Of a stretch of 35,421 bases of DNA, positions 1,146 to 35,270 are shown piece after piece (positions within the stretch are counted from its first letter, which is position 1; every line of letters starts with the position of its first letter). The stretch is from an uncultured Bacilli bacterium (GTDB taxonomy: Bacteria > Bacillota_I > Bacilli_A > RF39 > UBA660). The stretch is from the NCBI GenBank assembly GCA_944358795.1, contig CALVRW010000035.1, forward strand, positions 1 to 35,421, written 5' to 3'. The notes beneath the pieces are model-generated. The model saw only the letters and a list, made by a program, of their open reading frames with translations, was not told the origin of the DNA and did not search any database. A program made the position numbers and the translations under genes.

Positions 1146-2237
1146 TTAGAATCCTCTATTTTTTAAAAATGGTGGAATATCAAAATCACTATCGTCATCA
1201 TCACTTGTGATATCATCCATACCACTTGTTACTTGTGATCTAGAATAAGAATGATATTCTGGTTCACTATTTCTTACTTTGTTTCTTTCTTCATCTTCAA
1301 ATCCTGTTGCGATAACTGTAACGATAATTTCATCATTTAAGTTTTCGTTAATAACAGCTCCAAAAATGGTGTTAATATCTGTATTTGCACTTTGGCGAAT
1401 TACTTCAGCAGCTTCTTCTACTTCAAATAATGTTAAGTTAGCTCCTCCAGTTACGTTAATAATCGCATCTGTTGCTCCACTAATACTTGTTTCAAGTAAT
1501 GGACTTTCTACAGCTTGACGAGCAGCTTCTGCAGCTCTATCTTCTCCAACACCCATACCAATACCAATTAAAGCATTTCCACGGTTTTCCATAACTGTTT
1601 TAACATCGGCAAAGTCCAAATTGATTAACCCAGCTACAGCAATCAAATCAGAGATAGATTGAACTCCTCTACGAAGTACATTATCTACTTCTTTAAATGA
1701 TTCTAATAGTGGTGTTGACTTATCAATAATTTCTCTTAATCGATCATTTGGAATTACAATTAACGTATCAACATGTTTTTTTAATTGTTCCATTCCAAGT
1801 AGAGCTTGTTCCATTCTTTTCTTTCCTTCAAAAGAGAATGGTTTTGTAACAATACCAACGGTTAATGCACCTAATTCTTGTGAAATTTCAGCAATAACTG
1901 GAGCAGCACCTGTTCCAGTACCTCCACCCATTCCACAAGTAACAAACACCATATCAGCGCCTTCTAAAGCAGCTTGTATTTCTTGTTTTGATTCTAAAGC
2001 AGCATCTTTTCCAATTTCTGGATTTGCTCCTGCTCCAAGACCATTTGTAAGTTTCGCCCCAATTTGGATTTTTATATCAGCTTTTGAATTGTTTAATACT
2101 TGTAAATCAGTATTCGCAACAATAAAATCTACCCCTTTTACTCCTGATTCTATCATTCGATTAACGGCGTTGTTTCCTCCACCGCCAACTCCAATTACTT
2201 TTATTTTTGCAAGTTGATCCATTTGTAAACCAAACAT
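1146..2237 (-). CDS. ftsZ: cell division GTPase FtsZ
   Basis: Tubulin-like GTPase that polymerises into the cytokinetic Z-ring; 363 residues, slightly short for the family. Visible motifs: the N-terminal glycine-rich nucleotide loop [13 protein letters not shown], the tubulin signature [10 protein letters not shown] near residue 105, and the T7 synergy loop NLDFADV that completes the active site of the next subunit. The C-terminus carries an acidic linker of only about 45 residues followed by the conserved tail [11 protein letters not shown], which binds FtsA. ATG has a GGGAGGAAAATT ribosome site. It follows ftsA by 12 bases in one transcript. Confidence 0.98.
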
Positions 2238-2249
2238 AATTTTCCTCCC

Positions 2250-3506
2250 TTATTCATTAAAAAAGTATCCGAATACTTTTCCTAGCATCGATTCATTTGT
2301 TCCATAATGATCATTTTCATTTGATAAAATAGAACTGTCATCTTCACTAATCATTGTATCACGAATCCCTAGTAATTTCAATTTACTTATGTAATAAACA
2401 ATGTTTCCTACACTAGAAGAATAACGATTATTCCTTACTCCTATTAACTTCATATTCCCTACAATCGCACGTTTCCCTAGTACAGATGTAACCATTTGAG
2501 GAAAATTTGTCATATTAGAAACCCCACCAGTTACTAAGATATAATCAACTTCTCTACTCGTTAAAGCATGAATTTCTTTTCTAGCAAGCTCTAAAATTTC
2601 TTCTAAACGTGCCATCACAATTTCCGATGCTTCTAATTGATTAATCTTAATGATTGTTTTTTCATTGTTTGCTACTTCATATACTTCACTTGCTTTCGCA
2701 AATCGTTTATGAGCAAGGGCAAACTTCTCTTTGATATTCACAGCAACACTATGATTTAGTTTATAAATATAAGATAAATCATTATCAATATTCTTTCCCC
2801 CTAAACCAATCACACTATTTTTTACAATAATACCTTTATTATAGATAGAGACTGTTGTTGTTTCACTACCAATATTAATAATAGCACCTATCTTTTGATC
2901 CATATCTTTGTTTTTAAAAGCATACATATCTCCGATTCCATTAATCGAAATATCTTTTACTGAAATTCCAATTCCTTCAATTAATGATACAACAGAATAA
3001 ACATTTTTCTTTGGAACAGTTACCATAACTCCTCTTACTTCTAATAGAGAAGCAGGTAATCCAAGTGGATATTTTACAACTGATTTTCCATCAATTTTAA
3101 AATCAATTGGTAATGTTGTAACAAATTCTTCATTGGGATTTCTTTTTGAGTAAGATGCTTTCTTTAACAATATCGAAATATCGTTCCCTTCAATATGGCC
3201 AATTTCACCATCTATTGTAGGTTCTATTTTAATTGCACTAGATACTAAGTTAAAATTTGCATAATAACTAGGAACGGATGCGATCACTTGCTTGATTCGT
3301 ATCCCTAACATTGCTTCTATTTCATTCATTGCTTCCCGAAGTGATATTTTACAAGCATCTACATCAGTAATAAGCCCTTTTTTTATTCCTTTTGATTTTA
3401 CACTTGTAGCAGCAAGTAAATTAAGCTTATTTTGATATAATTCACACACAACAACCTTAATTGCGTCTGTTCCAATATCAACACTGGAATAAATCTGCTT
3501 CATCAT
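2250..3506 (-). CDS. ftsA: cell division protein FtsA
   Basis: Actin-fold ATPase that anchors FtsZ filaments to the membrane and recruits later divisome proteins; 418 residues, normal length. Visible: N-terminal phosphate-1 loop SVDIGTDAIKVVV, a second phosphate loop around GAIINIGSETTTVSIY, and the adenosine-binding VDYILVTGGVSNM. The protein ends in an amphipathic helix (SMLGKVFGYFF) that fits the family's membrane-targeting tail. Two adjacent ATG codons follow GGAGATGAT and either could serve; the first is given. The gene has its own promoter at 3531-3559 and is co-transcribed with ftsZ. Confidence 0.97.
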   Translation of the reverse strand: MMKQIYSSVDIGTDAIKVVVCELYQNKLNLLAATSVKSKGIKKGLITDVDACKISLREAMNEIEAMLGIRIKQVIASVPSYYANFNLVSSAIKIEPTIDGEIGHIEGNDISILLKKASYSKRNPNEEFVTTLPIDFKIDGKSVVKYPLGLPASLLEVRGVMVTVPKKNVYSVVSLIEGIGISVKDISINGIGDMYAFKNKDMDQKIGAIINIGSETTTVSIYNKGIIVKNSVIGLGGKNIDNDLSYIYKLNHSVAVNIKEKFALAHKRFAKASEVYEVANNEKTIIKINQLEASEIVMARLEEILELARKEIHALTSREVDYILVTGGVSNMTNFPQMVTSVLGKRAIVGNMKLIGVRNNRYSSSVGNIVYYISKLKLLGIRDTMISEDDSSILSNENDHYGTNESMLGKVFGYFFNE

Positions 3507-21084: not shown

Positions 21085-21771
21085 TTAGTCCTCCTTTACT
21101 ATTTCTTGAAAAATATAATTTGTACATAATAATCCAGCAAAACTTGGTACAATCGCATTAGAAGCAATCGTCTTAGTATTTGTTTTAACAGGTTGTTCTG
21201 TGCTACAAACAGTCATTACTTTTTCTTTTATTTTTTCTTCTTTCACCATTTTACGAATTGTTTTCGCAATCGGATCATAGCTGGTTTTTCGAATATCAAT
21301 ACATGCGATTTTGGTAGGATCTACTTTGTTACCCATACCCATAGAACTAATAAAAGGAATCTTTTTTTGTACACACATTCGAATAAATGCTTTCTTCGTA
21401 GAAATTGTATCACATGCATCAATCGCATAATCTACTGGTTCTTGAAATAAGCAATCGATATTGTCTGGCGTAATAAATTCTGATATAAGTGATACTTCAA
21501 TCGTTGGATTAATTTCTTTTACTCGTTCTTTCCAAGCATCTGTTTTCTTTTTTCCAATTGTCGATGTTGTTGCGATTAACTGACGATTGATATTAGATTG
21601 TTCTATGATATCACCATCTACTAAGATTAATTTTCCAATTCCTAATCTTGCAAGTGATTCTACTGCATAACCACCAACTCCACCAAGACCAATTACTAAT
21701 ACTGTCGTATTCTTTATTTTTTCTACTTTATCCCCAATTAATAATTCTAAACGATTGAAACGATTTTCCAT
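21085..21771 (-). CDS. tcdA: tRNA threonylcarbamoyladenosine dehydratase TcdA
   Basis: E1/ThiF-like enzyme that uses ATP to cyclise t6A37 to ct6A in ANN-decoding tRNAs. 228 residues from the ATG at 21771, which follows AAAGGATTT; an in-frame upstream extension has no ribosome site. Visible: nucleotide loop VIGLGGVGGYAVESLARLG, DGDIIEQSNINRQ with the Arg finger, DACDTISTK, and the late MTVCSTEQP with a conserved Cys. Length and motifs fit TcdA (CsdL/YgdL) better than MoeB or ThiF, which have C-terminal zinc CxxC pairs absent here. Confidence 0.9.
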   Translation of the reverse strand: MENRFNRLELLIGDKVEKIKNTTVLVIGLGGVGGYAVESLARLGIGKLILVDGDIIEQSNINRQLIATTSTIGKKKTDAWKERVKEINPTIEVSLISEFITPDNIDCLFQEPVDYAIDACDTISTKKAFIRMCVQKKIPFISSMGMGNKVDPTKIACIDIRKTSYDPIAKTIRKMVKEEKIKEKVMTVCSTEQPVKTNTKTIASNAIVPSFAGLLCTNYIFQEIVKED

Positions 21772-21823
21772 ACTATAAATCCTTTCTTTAATAAAATCAC
21801 TAGTTCCATTATAACACAATTTC

Positions 21824-21851
21824 AAAAAAAATAAGATATTGCTATCTTATT
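21824..21851 (-). terminator. intrinsic terminator of the 348-residue gene
   Basis: AATAAGATA, loop GCAA, TATCTTATT and a run of Ts on the minus strand; the stem begins in the stop codon. Confidence 0.85.
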
Positions 21852-24060: not shown

Positions 24061-24783
24061 TTATCTTTTTTTCACTTTTTCTATTTTCTTTTCTTCTTGT
24101 TTTTCCTCTTTAATAGTTTTACTTCTAGGATAAATCGTTAAATTTTTAACTTTATTCACTTGCCACTTCATACCAATTGCTTCTAAAGCTTCTATCTGTT
24201 CCTCGGTTAATTTCAAGGCATTCTTTCCACGATAAGCCATTCGTAAATTATGAATCCAAGTCCCTAACTGGATTGGTCCAATTTGATAGTTAATGGGAAC
24301 TAATAAATTTCCATGCTCTAAGTAATAAGATTTCGCAAGCTCATAATAGTTATTCCATGATAAACGACGATAACGATTCCAGATAATCCCAATCGATTCT
24401 AATAATGTTACTTTTTCTTCTGATAACTCATTTCTACGATATAAATAACGTTGCATATTCAACCATTTTCCAACCTTAATACCATTTACTTGATAAGAAA
24501 GTGGTATCGTTAAATCTCCATGCTCCTCATAATAGAAACGACACAAATCATAATATGTCATCCAAGATAAATTAGGATTCCAAACAATTCCTAATTGCTC
24601 TAATTTATCAATACGTACTTGTGATAATGTATGATTTCGATAGTTTTGCCGTTGTTCCCGTAACCAAAGTCCTAGACGACAATCTCCTACTTTATAAGAT
24701 CTTGGTATCGTTAAATCTCCATGTTCTTTTTGATAAGTTTTGGCTAGTTCATACCACTTATTCCATCTTTCATCATGTTTCAT
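24061..24783 (-). CDS. triple helicase-associated (HA) domain protein
   Basis: 240 residues with three tandem repeats of about 66 residues. Each follows the pattern W-x2-x-Y-x-LA-x2-Y-x2-EHG(D/N)L-x-(I/V)P, then L-G-x-W-(L/I)-x2-(Q/L)R and a closing LE-x-(I/L)G-I/M-x-W. This is the helicase-associated domain, a winged-helix-like module often found as arrays after bacterial helicases; here there is no helicase portion. It may bind nucleic acid, but its function is unknown. The C-terminus is a lysine/glutamate tail. ATG at 24783 follows AAGGTGAG; a GTG 12 bases earlier overlaps that site. Confidence 0.88.
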   Translation of the reverse strand: MKHDERWNKWYELAKTYQKEHGDLTIPRSYKVGDCRLGLWLREQRQNYRNHTLSQVRIDKLEQLGIVWNPNLSWMTYYDLCRFYYEEHGDLTIPLSYQVNGIKVGKWLNMQRYLYRRNELSEEKVTLLESIGIIWNRYRRLSWNNYYELAKSYYLEHGNLLVPINYQIGPIQLGTWIHNLRMAYRGKNALKLTEEQIEALEAIGMKWQVNKVKNLTIYPRSKTIKEEKQEEKKIEKVKKR

Positions 24784-24837
24784 TTTATCACTCACCTTTT
24801 TTGTTCTACTAAAATATCACAATCAAAAAAAGATGTC

Positions 24838-26091: not shown

Positions 26092-26111
26092 AAAAGAACT
26101 TTCGTTCTTTT
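26092..26111 (-). terminator. intrinsic terminator of the 26110-27288 gene
   Basis: AAAAGAAC, loop GAAA, GTTCTTTT then more Ts on the minus strand; the stem starts in the stop codon. Confidence 0.85.
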
Positions 26112-27288
26112 ATGACACTGTATAAGGGCTAGAACTTCGTCCGCTTCCTGTAAGGGTTACCGTATTTTTTAAATATAATACTGGACGAATTCCACCTTCT
26201 GTAGTAGTAGATTTTAATCTAATACTACCATCTTTTTGTAATTGATAAGCATGTTTTTGATAATTTGGAATCTCTGTTGTATTGAAAAACCATGTTTTAT
26301 TACCATCATATAAGTAATTATCAATCATACATTCTTCTTTTGTAGTTTTATTTAATCCATTACAAGCAATATTACTACTTGCTTTTAAGTAATCACTTAC
26401 ATTTAATAATCCTATATAATAAGAATCTTTCGCAATCGCACTACGTTCTAAAGCTACTAATTCTTTTAATGTAAGATCCTTATTTTCTTTTGTCTTACCA
26501 ATATACCAATTTGGTTTTACTAATTTTTCTACATCTAAAGTTTGAATGACATTATTCACATTTTTATCTGTATCCCAGATTTCAATCATATTCTTCAATG
26601 TAGCAGGCTTATTCCAATCATTACTTCCTGTTTCATCCCAAACAAGTTCCGCAATCACACCTTTATCTGATGCTGGTGTACAAGTATCATTGTCAGATAC
26701 TGGCCCATCATAAATAATTTTAATAGAATTATTTGATGTAATACCAATGATTCTATAACATGAACGATTGAAAATTAAATAATTACTTGGATTTTTACCA
26801 ACATAGTATTTTTTTGTTGCCCATGGATTATTTAAATCCAATCCTGTTTTTTCTGTATCATTTACAAGTTCAAAATTAGTTAGTAAATCCTCAACTGTAT
26901 TTTCTTTTGTAAGACATGTTTGTTCTGATGTTTTAGTATCATCTATATTAAAGTCTGTATCTGTTACTTTCTTTGTTACACAATATTTAGAATCTACCCA
27001 CATTTCCATACTAGAATTTCCATATTTATCAAGTGTTAAAAGAAATGGGCCATGACTACGATCATTTCCATCAAAATAAGACTCTTCTGTATATGTAATC
27101 GTTTCTTTCTTATCCATATTCATATGAGTTAATTTAGCTGCTTCTAAAATCGAATAAGCAACATTTTTTACCTCTTTACGATTCTCTTTTTCTTTCCAAT
27201 CAACAACTAAAGAAATAACCCAAATTACTCCAATCACAAAAATGACAATAATTGAAATAATTTCCGCTGGTGATAGTTTCATTTTCAT
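26110..27288 (-). CDS. membrane-anchored pseudopilin-like surface protein
   Basis: 392 residues. A short basic N-terminus is followed by one long hydrophobic helix (about 8-30, IISIIVIFVIGVIWVISLVV) and then an extracellular region of about 360 residues. The layout and the following NVAYSILEAAKLTHMNM resemble pilin-like proteins (compare AYGILRAAETYFAQE in the 16062-17285 protein), but the GFTLIE cleavage motif is missing, so it may remain an uncleaved anchor. The external part has several cysteines (for example CYRIIGI, ACNGLNKTTKEECM) likely in disulfides. It ends in GGIRPVLYLKNTVTLTGSG, a C-terminal motif common in surface proteins of gut Firmicutes. Role unknown; adhesion is plausible. 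Confidence 0.78.
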   Translation of the reverse strand: MKMKLSPAEIISIIVIFVIGVIWVISLVVDWKEKENRKEVKNVAYSILEAAKLTHMNMDKKETITYTEESYFDGNDRSHGPFLLTLDKYGNSSMEMWVDSKYCVTKKVTDTDFNIDDTKTSEQTCLTKENTVEDLLTNFELVNDTEKTGLDLNNPWATKKYYVGKNPSNYLIFNRSCYRIIGITSNNSIKIIYDGPVSDNDTCTPASDKGVIAELVWDETGSNDWNKPATLKNMIEIWDTDKNVNNVIQTLDVEKLVKPNWYIGKTKENKDLTLKELVALERSAIAKDSYYIGLLNVSDYLKASSNIACNGLNKTTKEECMIDNYLYDGNKTWFFNTTEIPNYQKHAYQLQKDGSIRLKSTTTEGGIRPVLYLKNTVTLTGSGRSSSPYTVS

Positions 27289-27315: not shown

Positions 27316-27473
27316 AAAAAAAGTCTAAAGAGCATTATTGGAAACCGGATCTCCCAGGTGGGCATCACATACAAAGTTTTAGGATTCTTATTTAAAAATA
27401 AGTATTCAACACCACTTTGTAATTAGATTCCCAATTAATAACTTGTAGGTTTTATAAATTGCTATCTTTAGAC
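27316..27473 (-). ncRNA. 6S-like small RNA (candidate ssrS)
   Basis: About 151 bases plus a T tail, with a promoter at 27480-27508 placing the start at or next to 27473. The first eight bases, GUCUAAAG, pair with the last eight, CUUUAGAC, directly before seven Ts, so the whole transcript folds as one closed rod. Inward: AGCA/UGCU, AAACC/GGUUU, a 16-base one-sided bubble, GG(A)AUCU/AGAUCC, UACAAAGU/ACUUUGUA and an apical CUUAUU/AAUAAG hairpin. On the 3' side of the middle region CCC-ACCU-GGG can form a small alternative hairpin. A long closing stem, central bubble and terminal arm are the hallmarks of 6S RNA, which mimics an open promoter and binds RNA polymerase. No sequence search was possible; a leader RNA for the next gene is the main alternative. 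Confidence 0.6.
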
Positions 27474-27479
27474 AATTAC

Positions 27480-27508
27480 ATTATATCATATTCTAACGCA
27501 TTTGAGAA
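27480..27508 (-). promoter_or_regulatory. promoter of the 6S-like RNA
   Basis: TTCTCA (27503-27508), 17 bases, TATAAT (27480-27485) on the minus strand, 7 bases before the predicted RNA start. Confidence 0.7.
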
Positions 27509-27527: not shown

Positions 27528-29078
27528 TTATTTTTCAGTATACCGTTTCATCTTTTTTATATAATATTGTTTTCTCTTCTCTTTCATTTGTTGAAAATTA
27601 AAATGATTTTCTAAATAACATTCATTTAATATATTATTGATTTCATAATAATCTTGAAATGAAAATTCTTGAAATAATTTTTGCATCTTCTCTATATCAT
27701 GAAATTTTACATCATGTAATTGTTCTTTATATTTTTGATAGAACAGTTTAAGAAGAATGTAATAATTTTGATAGGAAGTAGCCTGTGGGCGATTACCATA
27801 ATCTAAGTTTCCAAATAAAGTAATTTTTTCTTCTAATAGTTTCTGATATAATTCTTCAGTCGAAAGTTGATGGAACACTTCATTTACCAAATCATAATGT
27901 AACATACAAGTTTTATCGTTTTTTTGTTCTAACGATAAACCACACTTTATTTTTTTCTCATTTGATAAATCCTGATATTCAGATACTTCTAATGCGTGCA
28001 AAAACTCATGAAGGGCAATCATGGAAGGATTCGTTGTTTTCAGTGGTTTTACAAAAAAGAATACTTGTATATCAGAAGCTTCGATATCACAAAATCCATC
28101 TACTTTCGGATTTAAAAATAAATCATTAACAGAAGTTGCTTTAAACGTATGCTTTCTTAATTCATCAATGATATAAGGTTTAAACGATTTAATATAAGGA
28201 TCAATTAAAAAACGTTGAATTTGATAATTATCATTGCAATCATTTAATAATGATTTTATTTCTAATACTACATTCCTTGATGGTGTATAAGCCAAATAAA
28301 TTGGATTATCAAGATACTCATCAATCGAATTAATATCCAAATGGTAACATGTATTTAAATATTTAATTCTTTCTTGAATGATAGTTCCTTTTATAGCTCC
28401 TTCCGGCATATATTCTATTTCTTCACAAAATCCATTTATCATAGTAGATATAACTTGATTAGGATCTATTTTAGAAACCAAGTTTTCATCATTCCAATAT
28501 TGCTTCTTTGCATACTCCATATGAAGTGATTGGCAAAATGGTTGATCAGGATATTCGTTTACTAACTCTTTATAAAAACGACTCATAAACTTGTTATAAA
28601 TCCATATGTTTTTTCGTACAAAAGAAGTTATTTTTTGAAAATCATCACGATAAACATCCATTACTTTACTATATTCTAATCCTTTATTTTCATGAAGCGT
28701 TACAATCTCTTCATCATCAACTTTTTCAATATGATCAATTAATTTTTTAGCCTTATCCCATTCTACAACGTAACGTTCGAAAAATTTAGCGTGATCATAA
28801 TACAATACTTTTTGTTTTATGATATCCGTTTGAAATAAATCTTGTTTTACTGTAAATCCTATTTCCAAAAGAAACTCTAGTAAGAAGTGGGATTTCCATA
28901 CTTTACTTTGCTGATATAAAAACTCATCGACATCGTCTATTGGAGTATAAACATAACCTTTTATTTTCTTCAGTCTCTCTTTTATCTCATCTGGATTTGT
29001 TTGATAAAAGTCAGCCAACTTTTGAATTGCTTCTTCAGATATATCATTTAATTGTAATTTTTCTTGAAAATCAATCAT
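27528..29078 (-). CDS. uncharacterised HEFLH zinc-protease-like protein
   Basis: 516 residues, soluble, no signal peptide. The region near residues 353-363 reads MIALHEFLHALE, an HExxH zinc-binding and catalytic motif in a helix. About 40 residues later LVNEVFHQLSTEEL offers a Glu as a possible third zinc ligand, the gluzincin arrangement. The first 340 residues are helical and aromatic with no known domain; the C-terminus is lysine-rich (MKEKRKQYYIKKMKR). It resembles no named peptidase I can recall. It starts 8 bases after the ttcA-like gene with a good AAGGTG site, so it is co-expressed with it. It could be a cytosolic peptidase or a conflict-type effector; both are inference. Confidence 0.75.
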   Translation of the reverse strand: MIDFQEKLQLNDISEEAIQKLADFYQTNPDEIKERLKKIKGYVYTPIDDVDEFLYQQSKVWKSHFLLEFLLEIGFTVKQDLFQTDIIKQKVLYYDHAKFFERYVVEWDKAKKLIDHIEKVDDEEIVTLHENKGLEYSKVMDVYRDDFQKITSFVRKNIWIYNKFMSRFYKELVNEYPDQPFCQSLHMEYAKKQYWNDENLVSKIDPNQVISTMINGFCEEIEYMPEGAIKGTIIQERIKYLNTCYHLDINSIDEYLDNPIYLAYTPSRNVVLEIKSLLNDCNDNYQIQRFLIDPYIKSFKPYIIDELRKHTFKATSVNDLFLNPKVDGFCDIEASDIQVFFFVKPLKTTNPSMIALHEFLHALEVSEYQDLSNEKKIKCGLSLEQKNDKTCMLHYDLVNEVFHQLSTEELYQKLLEEKITLFGNLDYGNRPQATSYQNYYILLKLFYQKYKEQLHDVKFHDIEKMQKLFQEFSFQDYYEINNILNECYLENHFNFQQMKEKRKQYYIKKMKRYTEK

Positions 29079-30020: not shown

Positions 30021-31832
30021 TTATTCTTCTACTTCTTCAAATTGTGAATTATATAGTTTTGCATATGCACCATTTTTAGCAAGTAAGTTATCATGTGTAC
30101 CAGTTTCTACGATATCTCCATCTTGCATAACGATGATCATATCCGCATTTTTAATTGTTGATAAACGATGGGCAATAATGAAACTTGTTCTTCCTTCCAT
30201 TAATTTATCCATCGCATCTTGGATTAATAATTCTGTTCTCGTATCAACGCTACTTGTAGCTTCATCTAAAATTAAGATTTTTGGATTTGCTAAAATCACT
30301 CTGGCAATCGTTAATAATTGTTTTTGACCACCAGAAATATTATCTGCTTCTTCATTGATGATCATATCGTATCCGTCAGGAAGTGTTCTAATAAAGTGAT
30401 CAACACTAGCTGTTTTACAAGCTTCTCTTACTTCATCTAACGTTGCATCTAATTTTCCATAACGAATATTATCAGCTACGGTACCACTAAATAACCATGT
30501 ATCTTGAAGTACCATTCCAAATAAAGAACGTAATTCTGAACGTTTGAAATCACGAATATCGATTCCATCTACTTTGATAGAACCACTATTAACGTCATAG
30601 AAACGCATTAGTAATTTAATCATCGTACTTTTTCCTGCTCCAGTAGGTCCTACAATGGCAATTTTAGAACCTTTCTTCACTTTCGCACTAAAGTCATTGA
30701 TAATAATTTTATCAGGATTATATCCGAAGTGAACATGATCAAATTCAATATTTCCTTCAATATGATCTACTGTAACACCTTTCTTGGCTGTTTCTACTTC
30801 TTCTGGTTCTGCTAAGAATTCAAATACTCTTTCACTCGCTGCAATAGCAAGTTGCACCATATTCATAATTTGGGCAATTTGACTAATTTGTTGCATAAAT
30901 GTTCGCGCATATTGTGTAAATGATAAAATATCTCCTACTTCAATCCTATCTTTAATAACCATGTATCCACCAAGTAAAGAGACTACAACATAACTTAAGT
31001 TACCAATAAAAGTCATAATTGGATGCATCATTGTTGATAAGAATTGACTCTTCCATGCTGTTTCATATAATTCATGGTTAATATCATTAAATGCTGCAGT
31101 TGCTTTTTCTTCACCATTAAATGCTTTTACAATATCATGTCCACCATAAATTTCTTCTACATGACCATTCATAACTCCTAAGTATTTTTGTTGATTTGTA
31201 AAGAATATTTGACTCTTCTTTACTACTTTACCAAGTACTAACATACATAATGGTACAATGAGTAATACAACTATTGCCATCGGTATATTAATCGATACCA
31301 TCATGATAAAAATACCAATTAATGTTGCAACACTCATAATAATTTGGGTAATACTTTGATTCAAACTTTGTGTTAGTGTATCAACATCATTTGTAATACG
31401 TGATAATACTTCTCCATGTGTTTTTGAATCAAAGAATTTCATTGGTAAACGATTTATTTTTTCAATTAAATCTTTTCGTAATTGATATGAGATTTTAGCT
31501 GAGACATTACTCATAATGTATCCTTGTAAGAATGAGAATAATAAACTGACTAAATAAATTAAAACTAAGATTATAATAATTTGATTAATTTTATTAAAAT
31601 CAATACCACCTGTTCCACTAATCTTTGCCATTAATCCATTGAAAATTTCAGTTGTAATATTTCCTAAAATTTTAGGACCAATAATAGTAAAGACAGTTGA
31701 ACCAATTGCAAATAATAGAACGAAGAACAATGAAATTTTATATTGTTTTAATAAATTTAATAATTTTAAAGAGGTTCCTTTGATGTCTTTTGCTTTTTCA
31801 AATGAAGCATTTTTTCCACCACGATTATTCAT
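30021..31832 (-). CDS. heterodimeric ABC exporter, catalytic-site subunit
   Basis: 603 residues: six membrane segments (about 35-330) then an ATPase domain. Walker A GPTGAGKST at 395-403, signature NISGGQKQ at 498-505, Walker B ILILDEATSS with the catalytic Glu at 524, H-loop AHRLS at 554-558. All catalytic residues are intact. Half of a MdlAB/BmrCD-type multidrug or lipid exporter; the partner is the gene before it, overlapping by 8 bases. Substrate unknown. Confidence 0.93.
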   Translation of the reverse strand: MNNRGGKNASFEKAKDIKGTSLKLLNLLKQYKISLFFVLLFAIGSTVFTIIGPKILGNITTEIFNGLMAKISGTGGIDFNKINQIIIILVLIYLVSLLFSFLQGYIMSNVSAKISYQLRKDLIEKINRLPMKFFDSKTHGEVLSRITNDVDTLTQSLNQSITQIIMSVATLIGIFIMMVSINIPMAIVVLLIVPLCMLVLGKVVKKSQIFFTNQQKYLGVMNGHVEEIYGGHDIVKAFNGEEKATAAFNDINHELYETAWKSQFLSTMMHPIMTFIGNLSYVVVSLLGGYMVIKDRIEVGDILSFTQYARTFMQQISQIAQIMNMVQLAIAASERVFEFLAEPEEVETAKKGVTVDHIEGNIEFDHVHFGYNPDKIIINDFSAKVKKGSKIAIVGPTGAGKSTMIKLLMRFYDVNSGSIKVDGIDIRDFKRSELRSLFGMVLQDTWLFSGTVADNIRYGKLDATLDEVREACKTASVDHFIRTLPDGYDMIINEEADNISGGQKQLLTIARVILANPKILILDEATSSVDTRTELLIQDAMDKLMEGRTSFIIAHRLSTIKNADMIIVMQDGDIVETGTHDNLLAKNGAYAKLYNSQFEEVEE

Positions 31833-33984
31833 AATCTAATTCCTCCTTACTAAGTTGTGATAGTGCAATTTCTTTATAAACTTCGCATGTTTTCATTAAT
31901 TCTTGATGTGTTCCAATTCCTGCAATATCACCTTCATCTAATACAACAATTTGATCTGCGTTCATAATCGTACTAATACGTTGCGCTACAATTAGTACTG
32001 TTTTATCTTTTGTTATTTTTTGTAGTTCTCCTCTTAGTTTTGCATCTGTTTTGAAATCTAATGCAGAGAAACTATCATCGAATACATAAATGTCTGGATT
32101 TTTCGCAAGTGCTCTTGCAATCGCAAGACGTTGTTTTTGTCCACCACTGACATTGGTTCCACCTTGACTAATTGGTGCTTGATATTTTTTATCAAGTCCA
32201 TTAATAAATTCAGTTGCTTGTGCAATATCTGCAGCTTCCTTCATTGCTTTATCTGTAATCGCATCATTTCCATATTTAATATTCGATTCTACTGTACCGC
32301 TAAATAAAACTCCTTTTTGTGGAACAAATCCAATTTTATCTCTTAAATCTTTGGTACATACATCTTTGATATCAACACCATCAATTAAGATTTCTCCTTT
32401 GGTAACATCAAAGAATCTTGGAATTAAGTTAACAATCGTCGATTTTCCACTACCAGTAGATCCAATAAAGGCTGTCGTTTTTCCAGGTTCCGCTATAAAA
32501 TTGATATCTGTTAAAACATCATAATCAGCATCTGGATAACGGAAACAAACATTTCTAAATTCTACAATTCCCTTTTTCTTTGGATCAAATGGTTTCGGTT
32601 GTTTTGGATCTTTAATCACTGTATCATGTTCTAATACTTCGTTAATACGTTTTGCACTAACACTAGCACGTGGTAACATGATACTCATCATCGAAATCAT
32701 TAAGAATGCCATAATAATTTGCATTGTATATTGAATGTATGCCATGATATCTCCAACTTGCATTATACCAGTATCAACACCATTTGCACCTTTCCATACA
32801 ATTAATAAACAAATCATATTCATAATAAACATCATTGCTGGCATCATAAATGACATCACTCTTCCAATAAAACGATTGACTTTTGTTAAATGATCATTTA
32901 CGCCATCAAAACGTTCTTCTTCATGCTTTTCATTGGCAAAAGCACGAACTACTGGAAGTCCTGTCAAGATTTCTCTTGTAACTTGATTTAATCGGTCTAC
33001 GATTTTCTGCATTAATTTCATCTTTGGCATTGCAACACCAAATAATACAATAACTAATACAGAAATGGCTAACACAGCAATTCCAATAATATAAGTCATA
33101 CTAGCATTCGTACTCATGGCTTTCATAAGACCACCAATCGCAATAATTGGGGCATAGAATACAACACGAAGTAAGAATACAATAACACTTTGTACTTGTT
33201 GAATATCATTCGTTGTTCTTGTAATTAATGAAGAAGAACCAAGTTCTTTCATTTCTGTTTTAGAGAAACCTACTACTTTAGCAAATACTTTTTCACGTAA
33301 TGTTTTTGCTAATTTAGCAGCCATTCTAGAACCAATGAATGTAATTAAAATACCAATTACCATAATGATTAATGCTAGACCTAACATCTTAAGTCCTGCC
33401 ATAAAAATGTATTCAGTTTGCATCTTATCTGTATCAACACCAATACGTTGATATTCTGCTTTCACACTAGAAATAGCACCCTGTTCAATAATACTATCAG
33501 GTATATCTTTCATTTTTTCATGAATACCACGAACCATCTCTTGACGATTTTCCTCTGGCATCATACTTAATGTTTGAAATAAATCAACCCCTTCTGGAAT
33601 TTGTAACATTTCTTTTGACTCTTCATTAGAAGCAAACGAAATAATTAACATCGATGGAGCTAAAATATCACTTACTTTTTCTTTATCACTATTGTCTTTT
33701 AACTTATAAATTGCTTCCCCTTTATAAGTACCATCTTTTTCATATTGATTTAAGATATAATCTTTCTCTTTTTCTGTTAAAAATAGTTCAATCTTATTTA
33801 AGGTTGTTTCCCCTACTTCTTCAATAGCTGCATTTTCAATTCCACTTTGTTGTACCCCTACATTAACAATACGAGAAGTATAATCAGGTAGTGTTAAATC
33901 ACAAGCAGCTTGCACAAATAATAGAAGAATAATACATAAGATAGATACAATAGAACTTTTTAAATAATGAAATATTTTAATCAT
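31825..33984 (-). CDS. heterodimeric ABC exporter, degenerate-site subunit
   Basis: 719 residues. Between the first two membrane helices (about 12-30 and 195-218) there is a large extracellular domain of about 160 residues, as in some clostridial exporters of this family. Walker A GSTGSGKST at 508-516 and signature NVSGGQKQR at 611-619 are intact. The Walker B reads YVFDDS, with Asp where the catalytic Glu belongs, and the H-loop reads AQRIS, with Gln for His. This is the usual non-hydrolysing site of heterodimeric exporters. Its intact signature completes the active site of the 603-residue partner. The TetR gene overlaps its start by 8 bases; a strong AAGGAGG site precedes the ATG. Confidence 0.93.
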   Translation of the reverse strand: MIKIFHYLKSSIVSILCIILLLFVQAACDLTLPDYTSRIVNVGVQQSGIENAAIEEVGETTLNKIELFLTEKEKDYILNQYEKDGTYKGEAIYKLKDNSDKEKVSDILAPSMLIISFASNEESKEMLQIPEGVDLFQTLSMMPEENRQEMVRGIHEKMKDIPDSIIEQGAISSVKAEYQRIGVDTDKMQTEYIFMAGLKMLGLALIIMVIGILITFIGSRMAAKLAKTLREKVFAKVVGFSKTEMKELGSSSLITRTTNDIQQVQSVIVFLLRVVFYAPIIAIGGLMKAMSTNASMTYIIGIAVLAISVLVIVLFGVAMPKMKLMQKIVDRLNQVTREILTGLPVVRAFANEKHEEERFDGVNDHLTKVNRFIGRVMSFMMPAMMFIMNMICLLIVWKGANGVDTGIMQVGDIMAYIQYTMQIIMAFLMISMMSIMLPRASVSAKRINEVLEHDTVIKDPKQPKPFDPKKKGIVEFRNVCFRYPDADYDVLTDINFIAEPGKTTAFIGSTGSGKSTIVNLIPRFFDVTKGEILIDGVDIKDVCTKDLRDKIGFVPQKGVLFSGTVESNIKYGNDAITDKAMKEAADIAQATEFINGLDKKYQAPISQGGTNVSGGQKQRLAIARALAKNPDIYVFDDSFSALDFKTDAKLRGELQKITKDKTVLIVAQRISTIMNADQIVVLDEGDIAGIGTHQELMKTCEVYKEIALSQLSKEELDYE

Positions 33985-34600
33985 GTGATTCCTCCTTATA
34001 TAATCCTTTCTTTAACAATAATAATTGGTGTTCAAACTTGTGGTATACACTCTCTACATCCTCATTAAACTTAATAATTTTAATGAGAGAATGAATCAAA
34101 CACATATTACATAAATCAACAATATCATATAACTCTTCTTCTTTTGTAATATTTAACTTCTCTTTATCAATATAAGAAATTAAACGTTCCATTCGTTTCT
34201 TTTCTGCTGCAACATTTCTCTCTGACAAAACAGAAACATTTTTAAAATTAGTATTTAATACAATGTTTTGAAAGAATTTTTTACGTCGATTATGATTTAT
34301 TTTTTTAACAAATCTTAAAAATAATGCCTGATAAGATTTTAATAAATCACCATCGTTTTCTTCAAAAATCTGTTTCTCAATCTCAGAGAATTTTTTCTTA
34401 TGTATCGAAAGTAAATAATCATATAAATCTTCTTTATCTTCAAAATACATATAGAAACTACCACGAGAAATATTGGCATTATGAATAATTTGATTAATCG
34501 ATGCTTCATCAAAAGAAACACGACTAAACTCTTTAATTGCTGATTCATAAATCAATTTTTGCTTTTCTTTTGGTAAATTAAAAAAAGTTTGACTTGGCAT
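33977..34600 (-). CDS. TetR-family repressor of the ABC exporter
   Basis: 207 residues. The N-terminal helix-turn-helix (about 15-58) has the family pattern: EKQKLIYESAIKEFS, INQIIHNANISRGSFYMYF then EDKEDLYDYLL. The C-terminal ligand domain has no recognised inducer pocket. It is the first gene of a three-gene operon with the exporter, and its promoter carries a palindrome suited to a TetR dimer, so it most likely represses its own operon and is released by an exporter substrate. Confidence 0.92.
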   Translation of the reverse strand: MPSQTFFNLPKEKQKLIYESAIKEFSRVSFDEASINQIIHNANISRGSFYMYFEDKEDLYDYLLSIHKKKFSEIEKQIFEENDGDLLKSYQALFLRFVKKINHNRRKKFFQNIVLNTNFKNVSVLSERNVAAEKKRMERLISYIDKEKLNITKEEELYDIVDLCNMCLIHSLIKIIKFNEDVESVYHKFEHQLLLLKKGLYKEESHD

Positions 34601-34823: not shown

Positions 34824-35270
34824 CTACCCTTTGAAAGGGTTTTTATATTCTTTTTTAGTTAATTTATCTTTCATAATATCTTCTTTTTCTTGATCTTGTA
34901 TATATTTCCTTATCGTTGCCTCATTCAATCCCACCGTGCTTACATAATATCCTGTTGCCCAAAAATTTCTATTACCAAACTTATATTTTAAATTTGCATG
35001 TTTTTCAAACAACATTACTGTACTTTTTCCTTTTAAATATCCCATAAAACTTGACACACTGTATTTCGGTGGGATTGAAAGTAGTAAATGTACGTGGTCT
35101 GGCATAAGATGTCCTTCTTCTATTTTTACTCCTTTATATCTACATAAATTCGATATTATTTCACTTAAATCTTTTCTTAATTTATTATATATTACTTTCC
35201 TACGATACTTAGGTATAAATACTATATGATATTTGCACATCCATTTTGAATGTGATAAACTATTTGCCAG
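34824..35270 (-). CDS. tnpA: IS200-type Y1 transposase TnpA (probable CTG start)
   Basis: HUH/Y1 single-strand transposase. Visible: CKYHIVFIPKYRRKV at the first strand, the metal-binding HUH motif PDHVHLLL, and the catalytic-tyrosine helix IRKYIQDQ. The first ATG (35240) would cut off the start of the fold. In the same frame upstream the codons read LANSLSHSKW, matching the usual IS200 N-terminus MANSLSHTKW, with CTG at 35268-35270 in place of ATG and GGAG 9 bases before. A CTG start is therefore the best reading (148 residues); starting at 35240 gives 138. Minus strand; downstream the stop lies in a CCCTTT/AAAGGG palindrome. Confidence 0.85.
   Translation of the reverse strand: MANSLSHSKWMCKYHIVFIPKYRRKVIYNKLRKDLSEIISNLCRYKGVKIEEGHLMPDHVHLLLSIPPKYSVSSFMGYLKGKSTVMLFEKHANLKYKFGNRNFWATGYYVSTVGLNEATIRKYIQDQEKEDIMKDKLTKKEYKNPFKG

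What the first reader, a model, noticed from the sequence alone, without database searches (positions are those of the whole stretch)
27316..27508. Self-closing 6S-like RNA with its own promoter and terminator
Seen directly: a promoter (TTCTCA-17-TATAAT) starts a transcript whose first eight bases pair perfectly with its last eight, right before seven Ts. The interior folds into a rod with a one-sided 16-base bubble. Established: 6S RNA has this shape, and its 3' closing strand doubles as the terminator stem. At about 151 bases it is short for 6S, and it may be missed by automatic searches. Inference: it regulates RNA polymerase in stationary phase.
Basis: partly seen in the sequence, partly recalled or inferred. 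Interest (0 to 1): 0.6.

Follow-up and report, generated by a model that had tools for sequence, protein, structure and literature searches.

The report
Ordinary 6S RNA gene, short version
This is the single 6S RNA gene of an uncultured Bacilli bacterium, a known small RNA that imitates an opened promoter to hold RNA polymerase back; the find is real but ordinary, apart from comparative evidence that its central bubble can collapse into a second, conserved fold.

Summary
On the minus strand, an extended -10 promoter (TG-N-TATAAT, -35-like TTCTCA) starts a ~151-158 base RNA whose ends pair (GUCUAAAGA/UCUUUAGAC, 9 bp) directly before seven Ts. Rfam finds 6S (RF00013) at window 27318-27477 (-), 62.2 bits against a gathering score of 46.4; it is the only copy in the genome, so automatic searches do not miss it. 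Of 36 other genomes of the family, 35 carry a 6S match. The -10, closing stem, apical stems and T-run are kept, and the arms co-vary (own arms pair far better than swapped arms, 0 of 2000-3000 permutations). Between the window and its genus relative the RNA is 99.4% identical, the flanking genes 79-86%. Synteny with a tcdA-like gene (and rarA in relatives) fits the 6S-1 locus of Bacilli. Extra result: a helix matching the 'central bubble collapse helix' of B. subtilis 6S-1 co-varies in this family (z 8) and in other Bacilli families (z 6), while control segments do not; in the window's own copy it is weak. Polymerase binding, pRNA synthesis and expression are inferred, not shown. Verdict: new member of a known kind, at the short end of the size range.

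The parts
27316..27473 (-). 6S RNA transcript (predicted 5' end G27473 to end of T-run)
   Evidence: Rfam RF00013 62.2 bits at 27318-27477; promoter and closing stem
27503..27508 (-). -35-like hexamer TTCTCA (little conserved in the family)
27480..27488 (-). extended -10, TG-A-TATAAT
   Evidence: TG and TATAAT conserved in the 35 aligned family members
27465..27473 (-). closing stem P1, 5' strand GUCUAAAGA
27323..27331 (-). closing stem P1, 3' strand UCUUUAGAC
27316..27322 (-). T7 run, predicted terminator tail
   Evidence: T-run after the stem in most relatives
27448..27452 (-). P2 5' strand AAACC, also predicted pRNA template (nearly invariant in the family)
27342..27346 (-). P2 3' strand GGUUU
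27433..27447 (-). 5' strand of the central bubble; pRNA predicted to start opposite C27445 (5'-GUAGGUUUUAU...)
   Evidence: Rfam alignment; start site inferred from the pRNA rules in PMC8414754
27426..27432 (-). apical stem 5' arm GGGAAUC (pairs with 27366-27360)
27360..27366 (-). apical stem 3' arm GAUGCCC
27414..27421 (-). apical stem, UACAAAGU arm (pairs with 27377-27370)
   Evidence: co-varying, 0 of 2000 permutations
27370..27377 (-). apical stem, ACUUUGUA arm
27387..27402 (-). terminal hairpin CUUAUUU-UU-AAAUAAG
   Evidence: co-varying, 0 of 2000 permutations
27344..27359 (-). 3'-central-bubble hairpin ACCUGGGAGAUCCGGU (GAGA loop; one U-C mismatch here, perfect in many relatives)
   Evidence: family z 6.8
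27437..27442 (-). central bubble collapse helix, 5' strand GUUAUU (weak in this copy)
27334..27339 (-). central bubble collapse helix, 3' strand AAUAAU
26110..27288 (-). downstream ORF, 392 aa, no family match; starts 28 bases after the T-run
27528..29078 (-). upstream ORF, 516 aa, no family match; ends 20 bases before the -35
21085..21825 (-). ThiF-family gene (best NCBIfam match tRNA TcdA, below cut-off), syntenic neighbour of 6S in relatives

Best explanation
A single-copy 6S RNA gene of the 6S-1 type, transcribed on the minus strand from its own extended -10 promoter and ending at its closing stem plus T-run. Shown here: family membership by covariance model, conserved and co-varying structure, conserved promoter, synteny. 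Inferred from the family: the rod with its central bubble mimics an open promoter, occupies sigma-A RNA polymerase when NTPs are low, and is released when the polymerase copies the 5' bubble strand (about 5'-GUAGGUUUUAU...) into a short pRNA. The pRNA unwinds P2 (AAACC:GGUUU), and the freed 3' strand pairs with the distal part of the 5' bubble strand (collapse helix).
For: RF00013 62.2 bits over the full model, gathering 46.4; only match in the genome; 35 of 36 other family genomes match at E <= 0.001. Own arms pair better than swapped arms in P1, apical stem, terminal hairpin (0 of 2000), inner closing stem z 12.1, 3' bubble hairpin z 6.8, collapse helix z 8.2, control segment z -1.0. Collapse helix also co-varies in 21 sequences outside the family, z 6.2, control -0.7. 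RNA 99.4% identical between the two genus members against 79-86% in flanking genes. tcdA-like gene near 6S in 25 genomes and rarA in 11; rarA is the known 6S neighbour in lactic acid bacteria and B. subtilis (PMC8414754). Collapse helix known from B. subtilis 6S-1 probing and mutants (PMC8876501).
Against: No transcript, binding or pRNA data. In the window's own copy the collapse helix is short and A+U-rich (GUUAUU:AAUAAU), with predicted probability near 0 free and 0.02 with the pRNA site blocked, and the 3' hairpin has a mismatch; so the refolding step is weakly supported for this copy. P2 is nearly invariant, so it gives no covariation either way.
Confidence: 0.95

Rival explanations
1. The element is mainly a 5' leader or attenuator of the downstream gene (26110-27288): its closing stem plus T-run stops most transcripts and read-through expresses the gene.
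For: The next ORF starts 28 bases after the T-run, too close for a promoter of its own; the first same-strand ORF lies within 60 bases of the 6S match in 26 of 38 cases, counted.
Against: The downstream gene differs between relatives (tcdA-like in most, others elsewhere) while the RNA stays the same; in some relatives no gene follows closely or it is on the other strand. Full 6S features are not needed for a leader. Read-through may well occur in addition.
Confidence: 0.04
2. A decayed 6S relic: short, with a weakened 3' hairpin and collapse helix.
For: Shortest stem-to-stem length in the aligned set (151), U-C mismatch in the 3' hairpin, weak collapse helix.
Against: 99.4% identity to the genus relative, against 79-86% in flanking genes, with an unchanged -10 and closing stem; the single change (27363) is at an unpaired position.
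Confidence: 0.02
3. Chance hairpin-like structure, not a functional RNA.
For: Promoter-like matches in this A+T-rich region are at chance level.
Against: Covariance model score, family-wide conservation and co-variation.
Confidence: 0.01

Closest known systems
6S RNA family, Rfam RF00013 (SsrS / BsrA)
   Same: Full-length model match, rod with central bubble, closing stem, conserved CC(G/T)AC 5' bubble strand and GAUGCCCACCU 3' strand
   Different: 151 bases stem to stem, while typical 6S RNAs are about 200 (PMC8876501): shortened closing arm
Bacillus subtilis 6S-1 RNA (PMC8876501; PMC8414754)
   Same: 3' bubble hairpin, P2 and a competing collapse helix between distal 5' bubble and the 3' strand of P2; locus near rarA (and a tcdA-like gene) in relatives
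   Different: Predicted pRNA has GG at positions 4/5 rather than 5/6; the 3' hairpin here overlaps the P2 3' strand; collapse helix weak in the window copy
E. coli 6S RNA (ssrS)
   Same: Same general fold, GG at pRNA positions 4/5, RNA followed closely by a gene (E. coli ssrS-ygfA, from my own knowledge)
   Different: E. coli release uses a 9-bp 3' bubble hairpin rather than a collapse helix (PMC8876501)

Membership tests
6S RNA (RF00013) | Covariance model score above the curated gathering score | tested here: met
   62.2 against 46.4 bits, model positions 1-187
6S RNA (RF00013) | Rod: closing stem, large central bubble, apical stem with small internal loops, terminal hairpin | tested here: met
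   Rfam alignment and fold; arms co-vary in relatives
6S RNA (RF00013) | pRNA template in the 5' bubble strand with conserved GG in the pRNA and an adenine next to the start | tested here: met
   AAAACC nearly invariant in the family; window gives GUAGGUUUU with A27444 beside the start; rules from PMC8414754. Sequence match only
6S RNA (RF00013) | Own promoter, discrete transcript | tested here: inconclusive
   Conserved extended -10 and T-run; no expression data
6S RNA (RF00013) | Binds sigma-70/A RNA polymerase holoenzyme | not testable with these tools
   needs a binding assay or RIP-seq
6S RNA (RF00013) | Templates pRNA synthesis, pRNA-induced release | not testable with these tools
   needs in vitro transcription or small-RNA sequencing
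6S-1 type (Bacilli) | Collapse helix competing with P2 | tested here: inconclusive
   Co-varies in the family (z 8.2) and outside (z 6.2), but probability near 0 in the window copy
6S-1 type (Bacilli) | Locus next to rarA | tested here: inconclusive
   rarA near 6S in 11 relatives, tcdA-like gene in 25 genomes including this one; rarA not seen among the window genes scanned

The most novel reading that the evidence does not exclude
In this family of uncultured Bacilli, 6S RNA is a selected two-state switch: the collapsed fold (3' bubble hairpin plus collapse helix) is often predicted to be as stable as the polymerase-binding fold even without pRNA, so the lineage may tune how easily polymerase is released. 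Compensatory changes for the collapse helix across Bacilli families would be comparative evidence for a step so far known mainly from probing and mutants of B. subtilis and A. aeolicus RNAs.
Probability: 0.35. Interest if true: 0.45.

Novelty: new member of a known kind. Interest (0 to 1): 0.25.

Why it matters
It places a standard 6S RNA, at the small end of its size range, in a family of small-genome uncultured Bacilli (about 1 Mb) where nearly every genome keeps one, so this RNA survives strong genome reduction. The set of relatives also gives compensatory-change evidence for the collapse helix that is thought to help eject 6S-1 RNA from polymerase.

Tried and rejected
A plain MAFFT alignment of whole RNAs misaligned the 3' arms, so covariation was tested with anchored arms and own-versus-swapped permutations instead. 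The P1 permutation test cut off part of the window's own 3' arm; the window's P1 is taken. The automatic stem finder misplaced L023 and L041 and the outgroups. The first parser for class-wide loci failed on most of them because of a distance limit, and the repaired one still parsed only 21 of 52 non-family and 10 of 11 further family loci, so the class-wide test rests on a subset picked by sequence anchors. An alignment of the genus relative in the wrong orientation was discarded. No paper on 6S RNA in this lineage was found. Promoter and terminator scans alone were uninformative.

Full report
Observation. The finding lies on the minus strand. Reading that strand: TTCTCA at 27508-27503, 17 bases, TATAAT at 27485-27480 with TG in front, then G27473 seven bases further on. 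GUCUAAAGA (27473-27465) pairs with UCUUUAGAC (27331-27323), and TTTTTTT (27322-27316) follows. Stem to stem is 151 bases. Only 1 of 200 shuffles folds as well (z -2.57). The simple promoter scan is at chance level and the terminator scan finds nothing, so the case does not rest on those.

What it is. Rfam reports 6S RNA, RF00013, at 27318-27477 (-), 62.2 bits against a gathering score of 46.4, over the whole model. A search of the whole genome (1.17 Mb, 57 contigs, 94% complete) finds this copy and no other.

Organism. The SMC protein of the window is 96% identical to that of an uncultured Bacilli metagenome assembly (CALVJW010000011.1); most other hits are uncultured Bacilli, Erysipelotrichaceae and Tenericutes assemblies.

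Relatives. Of 36 other genomes of the same family, 35 have a 6S match at E <= 0.001 (counted from the table; the exception is G019). In a sample of 149 genomes of the class, 71 match, and several families have none (strict filters lose weak matches). In the 35 aligned family members the extended -10 is nearly constant (TG before it in 32 or more, TATAAT almost throughout, though -10 sites were picked by best match), while the -35 is not. A T-rich tail follows the closing stem in 31 of 35 by my count. Stem-to-stem length runs from 151 to 184 where the stem was placed well; the window and its genus relative are the shortest.

Covariation. For each helix I asked whether a sequence's own two arms pair better than arms swapped between sequences. 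P1, the apical stem and the terminal hairpin: 0 of 2000 permutations reach the observed value. Inner closing stem z 12.1, 3' bubble hairpin z 6.8. This test keeps composition but not relatedness, so the z-values overstate significance; a control segment next to the collapse helix gives z -1.0. Between the window and its genus relative the transcript differs at one base in 158 (27363, an unpaired position), the -10 to start region at none, the flanking genes at 14-21% of bases.

A second fold. The distal 5' bubble strand and the 3' strand just after the 3' bubble hairpin pair in the family through many different sequences (TAACGA:TCGTTA, GTGAT:ATCAC, AGGATA:TATCCT, AAGATAA:TTATCTT, AATCGA:TCGATT in DNA letters), z 8.2. 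This helix competes with P2 (AAAACC:GGUUUU plus flanks). [quoted passage not shown] subtilis 6S-1 RNA from structure probing and mutants, formed by the distal 5' bubble and the 3' strand of P2 (PMC8876501). The same helix co-varies in 21 sequences from other families of the class (z 6.2, control -0.7). When the pRNA-binding stretch is blocked in silico, its mean predicted probability rises from 0.39 to 0.71, going up in 31 of 35 sequences; part of that rise is expected simply because P2 is prevented. In the window's own copy the helix is only GUUAUU:AAUAAU and its predicted probability stays near zero. I could not establish whether covariation for this helix has been reported before; the library holds one paper with the term.

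Surroundings. The upstream ORF (27528-29078) ends 20 bases before the -35, and the downstream ORF (26110-27288) starts 28 bases after the T-run. In 26 of 38 cases the next same-strand ORF begins within 60 bases of the 6S match (counted), most often a ThiF-family gene closest to tcdA; that gene lies near 6S in 25 genomes, in the window at 21085-21825, and rarA lies near it in 11 (rarA named from its sequence by my own reading, not by a family search). rarA is the standing neighbour of 6S in lactic acid bacteria and of 6S-1 in B. subtilis (PMC8414754), so the locus is probably orthologous to 6S-1. Read-through into the downstream gene is possible, as in the E. coli ssrS-ygfA arrangement (own knowledge), but the downstream gene is not constant, so the RNA is best seen as an independent unit.

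Mechanism. Shown: a conserved, structured RNA with the family's defining fold and a conserved promoter. Inferred from the family: it binds sigma-A RNA polymerase as a promoter mimic and is released by pRNA synthesis. The pRNA should start opposite C27445 (5'-GUAGGUUUUAU...), with GG at 4/5 and the conserved adenine (A27444) beside the start (rules from PMC8414754). The stationary-phase role is not testable here.

Verdict. Interest is low, raised a little by the comparative support for the collapse helix.

Noticed in passing
L002, L003, L005, L092, L102 (genomes G057, G046, G043, G078, G084): Other families of the class carry two to four 6S copies in tandem within about 1.6 kb, unlike the single copy here.
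   Followed up: no
G014 (L027, L040) and G026 (L009, L053): Two genomes of the window's own family have two 6S copies on different contigs.
   Followed up: partly
window 26110-27288; G023 neighbours of 6S: 392-aa protein with a hydrophobic N-terminus and no family match; two related proteins sit side by side upstream of 6S in genome G023.
   Followed up: no
window 27528-29078: 516-aa protein without a family match, shared only with the genus relative in this set, and less conserved (79% DNA identity) than the gene on the other side of 6S.
   Followed up: no
window 30021-34600 and 34824-35240: Pair of MsbA-like ABC transporters with a TetR-type regulator, next to an IS200-type transposase.
   Followed up: no
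window 24061-24795: Protein made of three helicase-associated (HA) domains without a helicase domain found.
   Followed up: no
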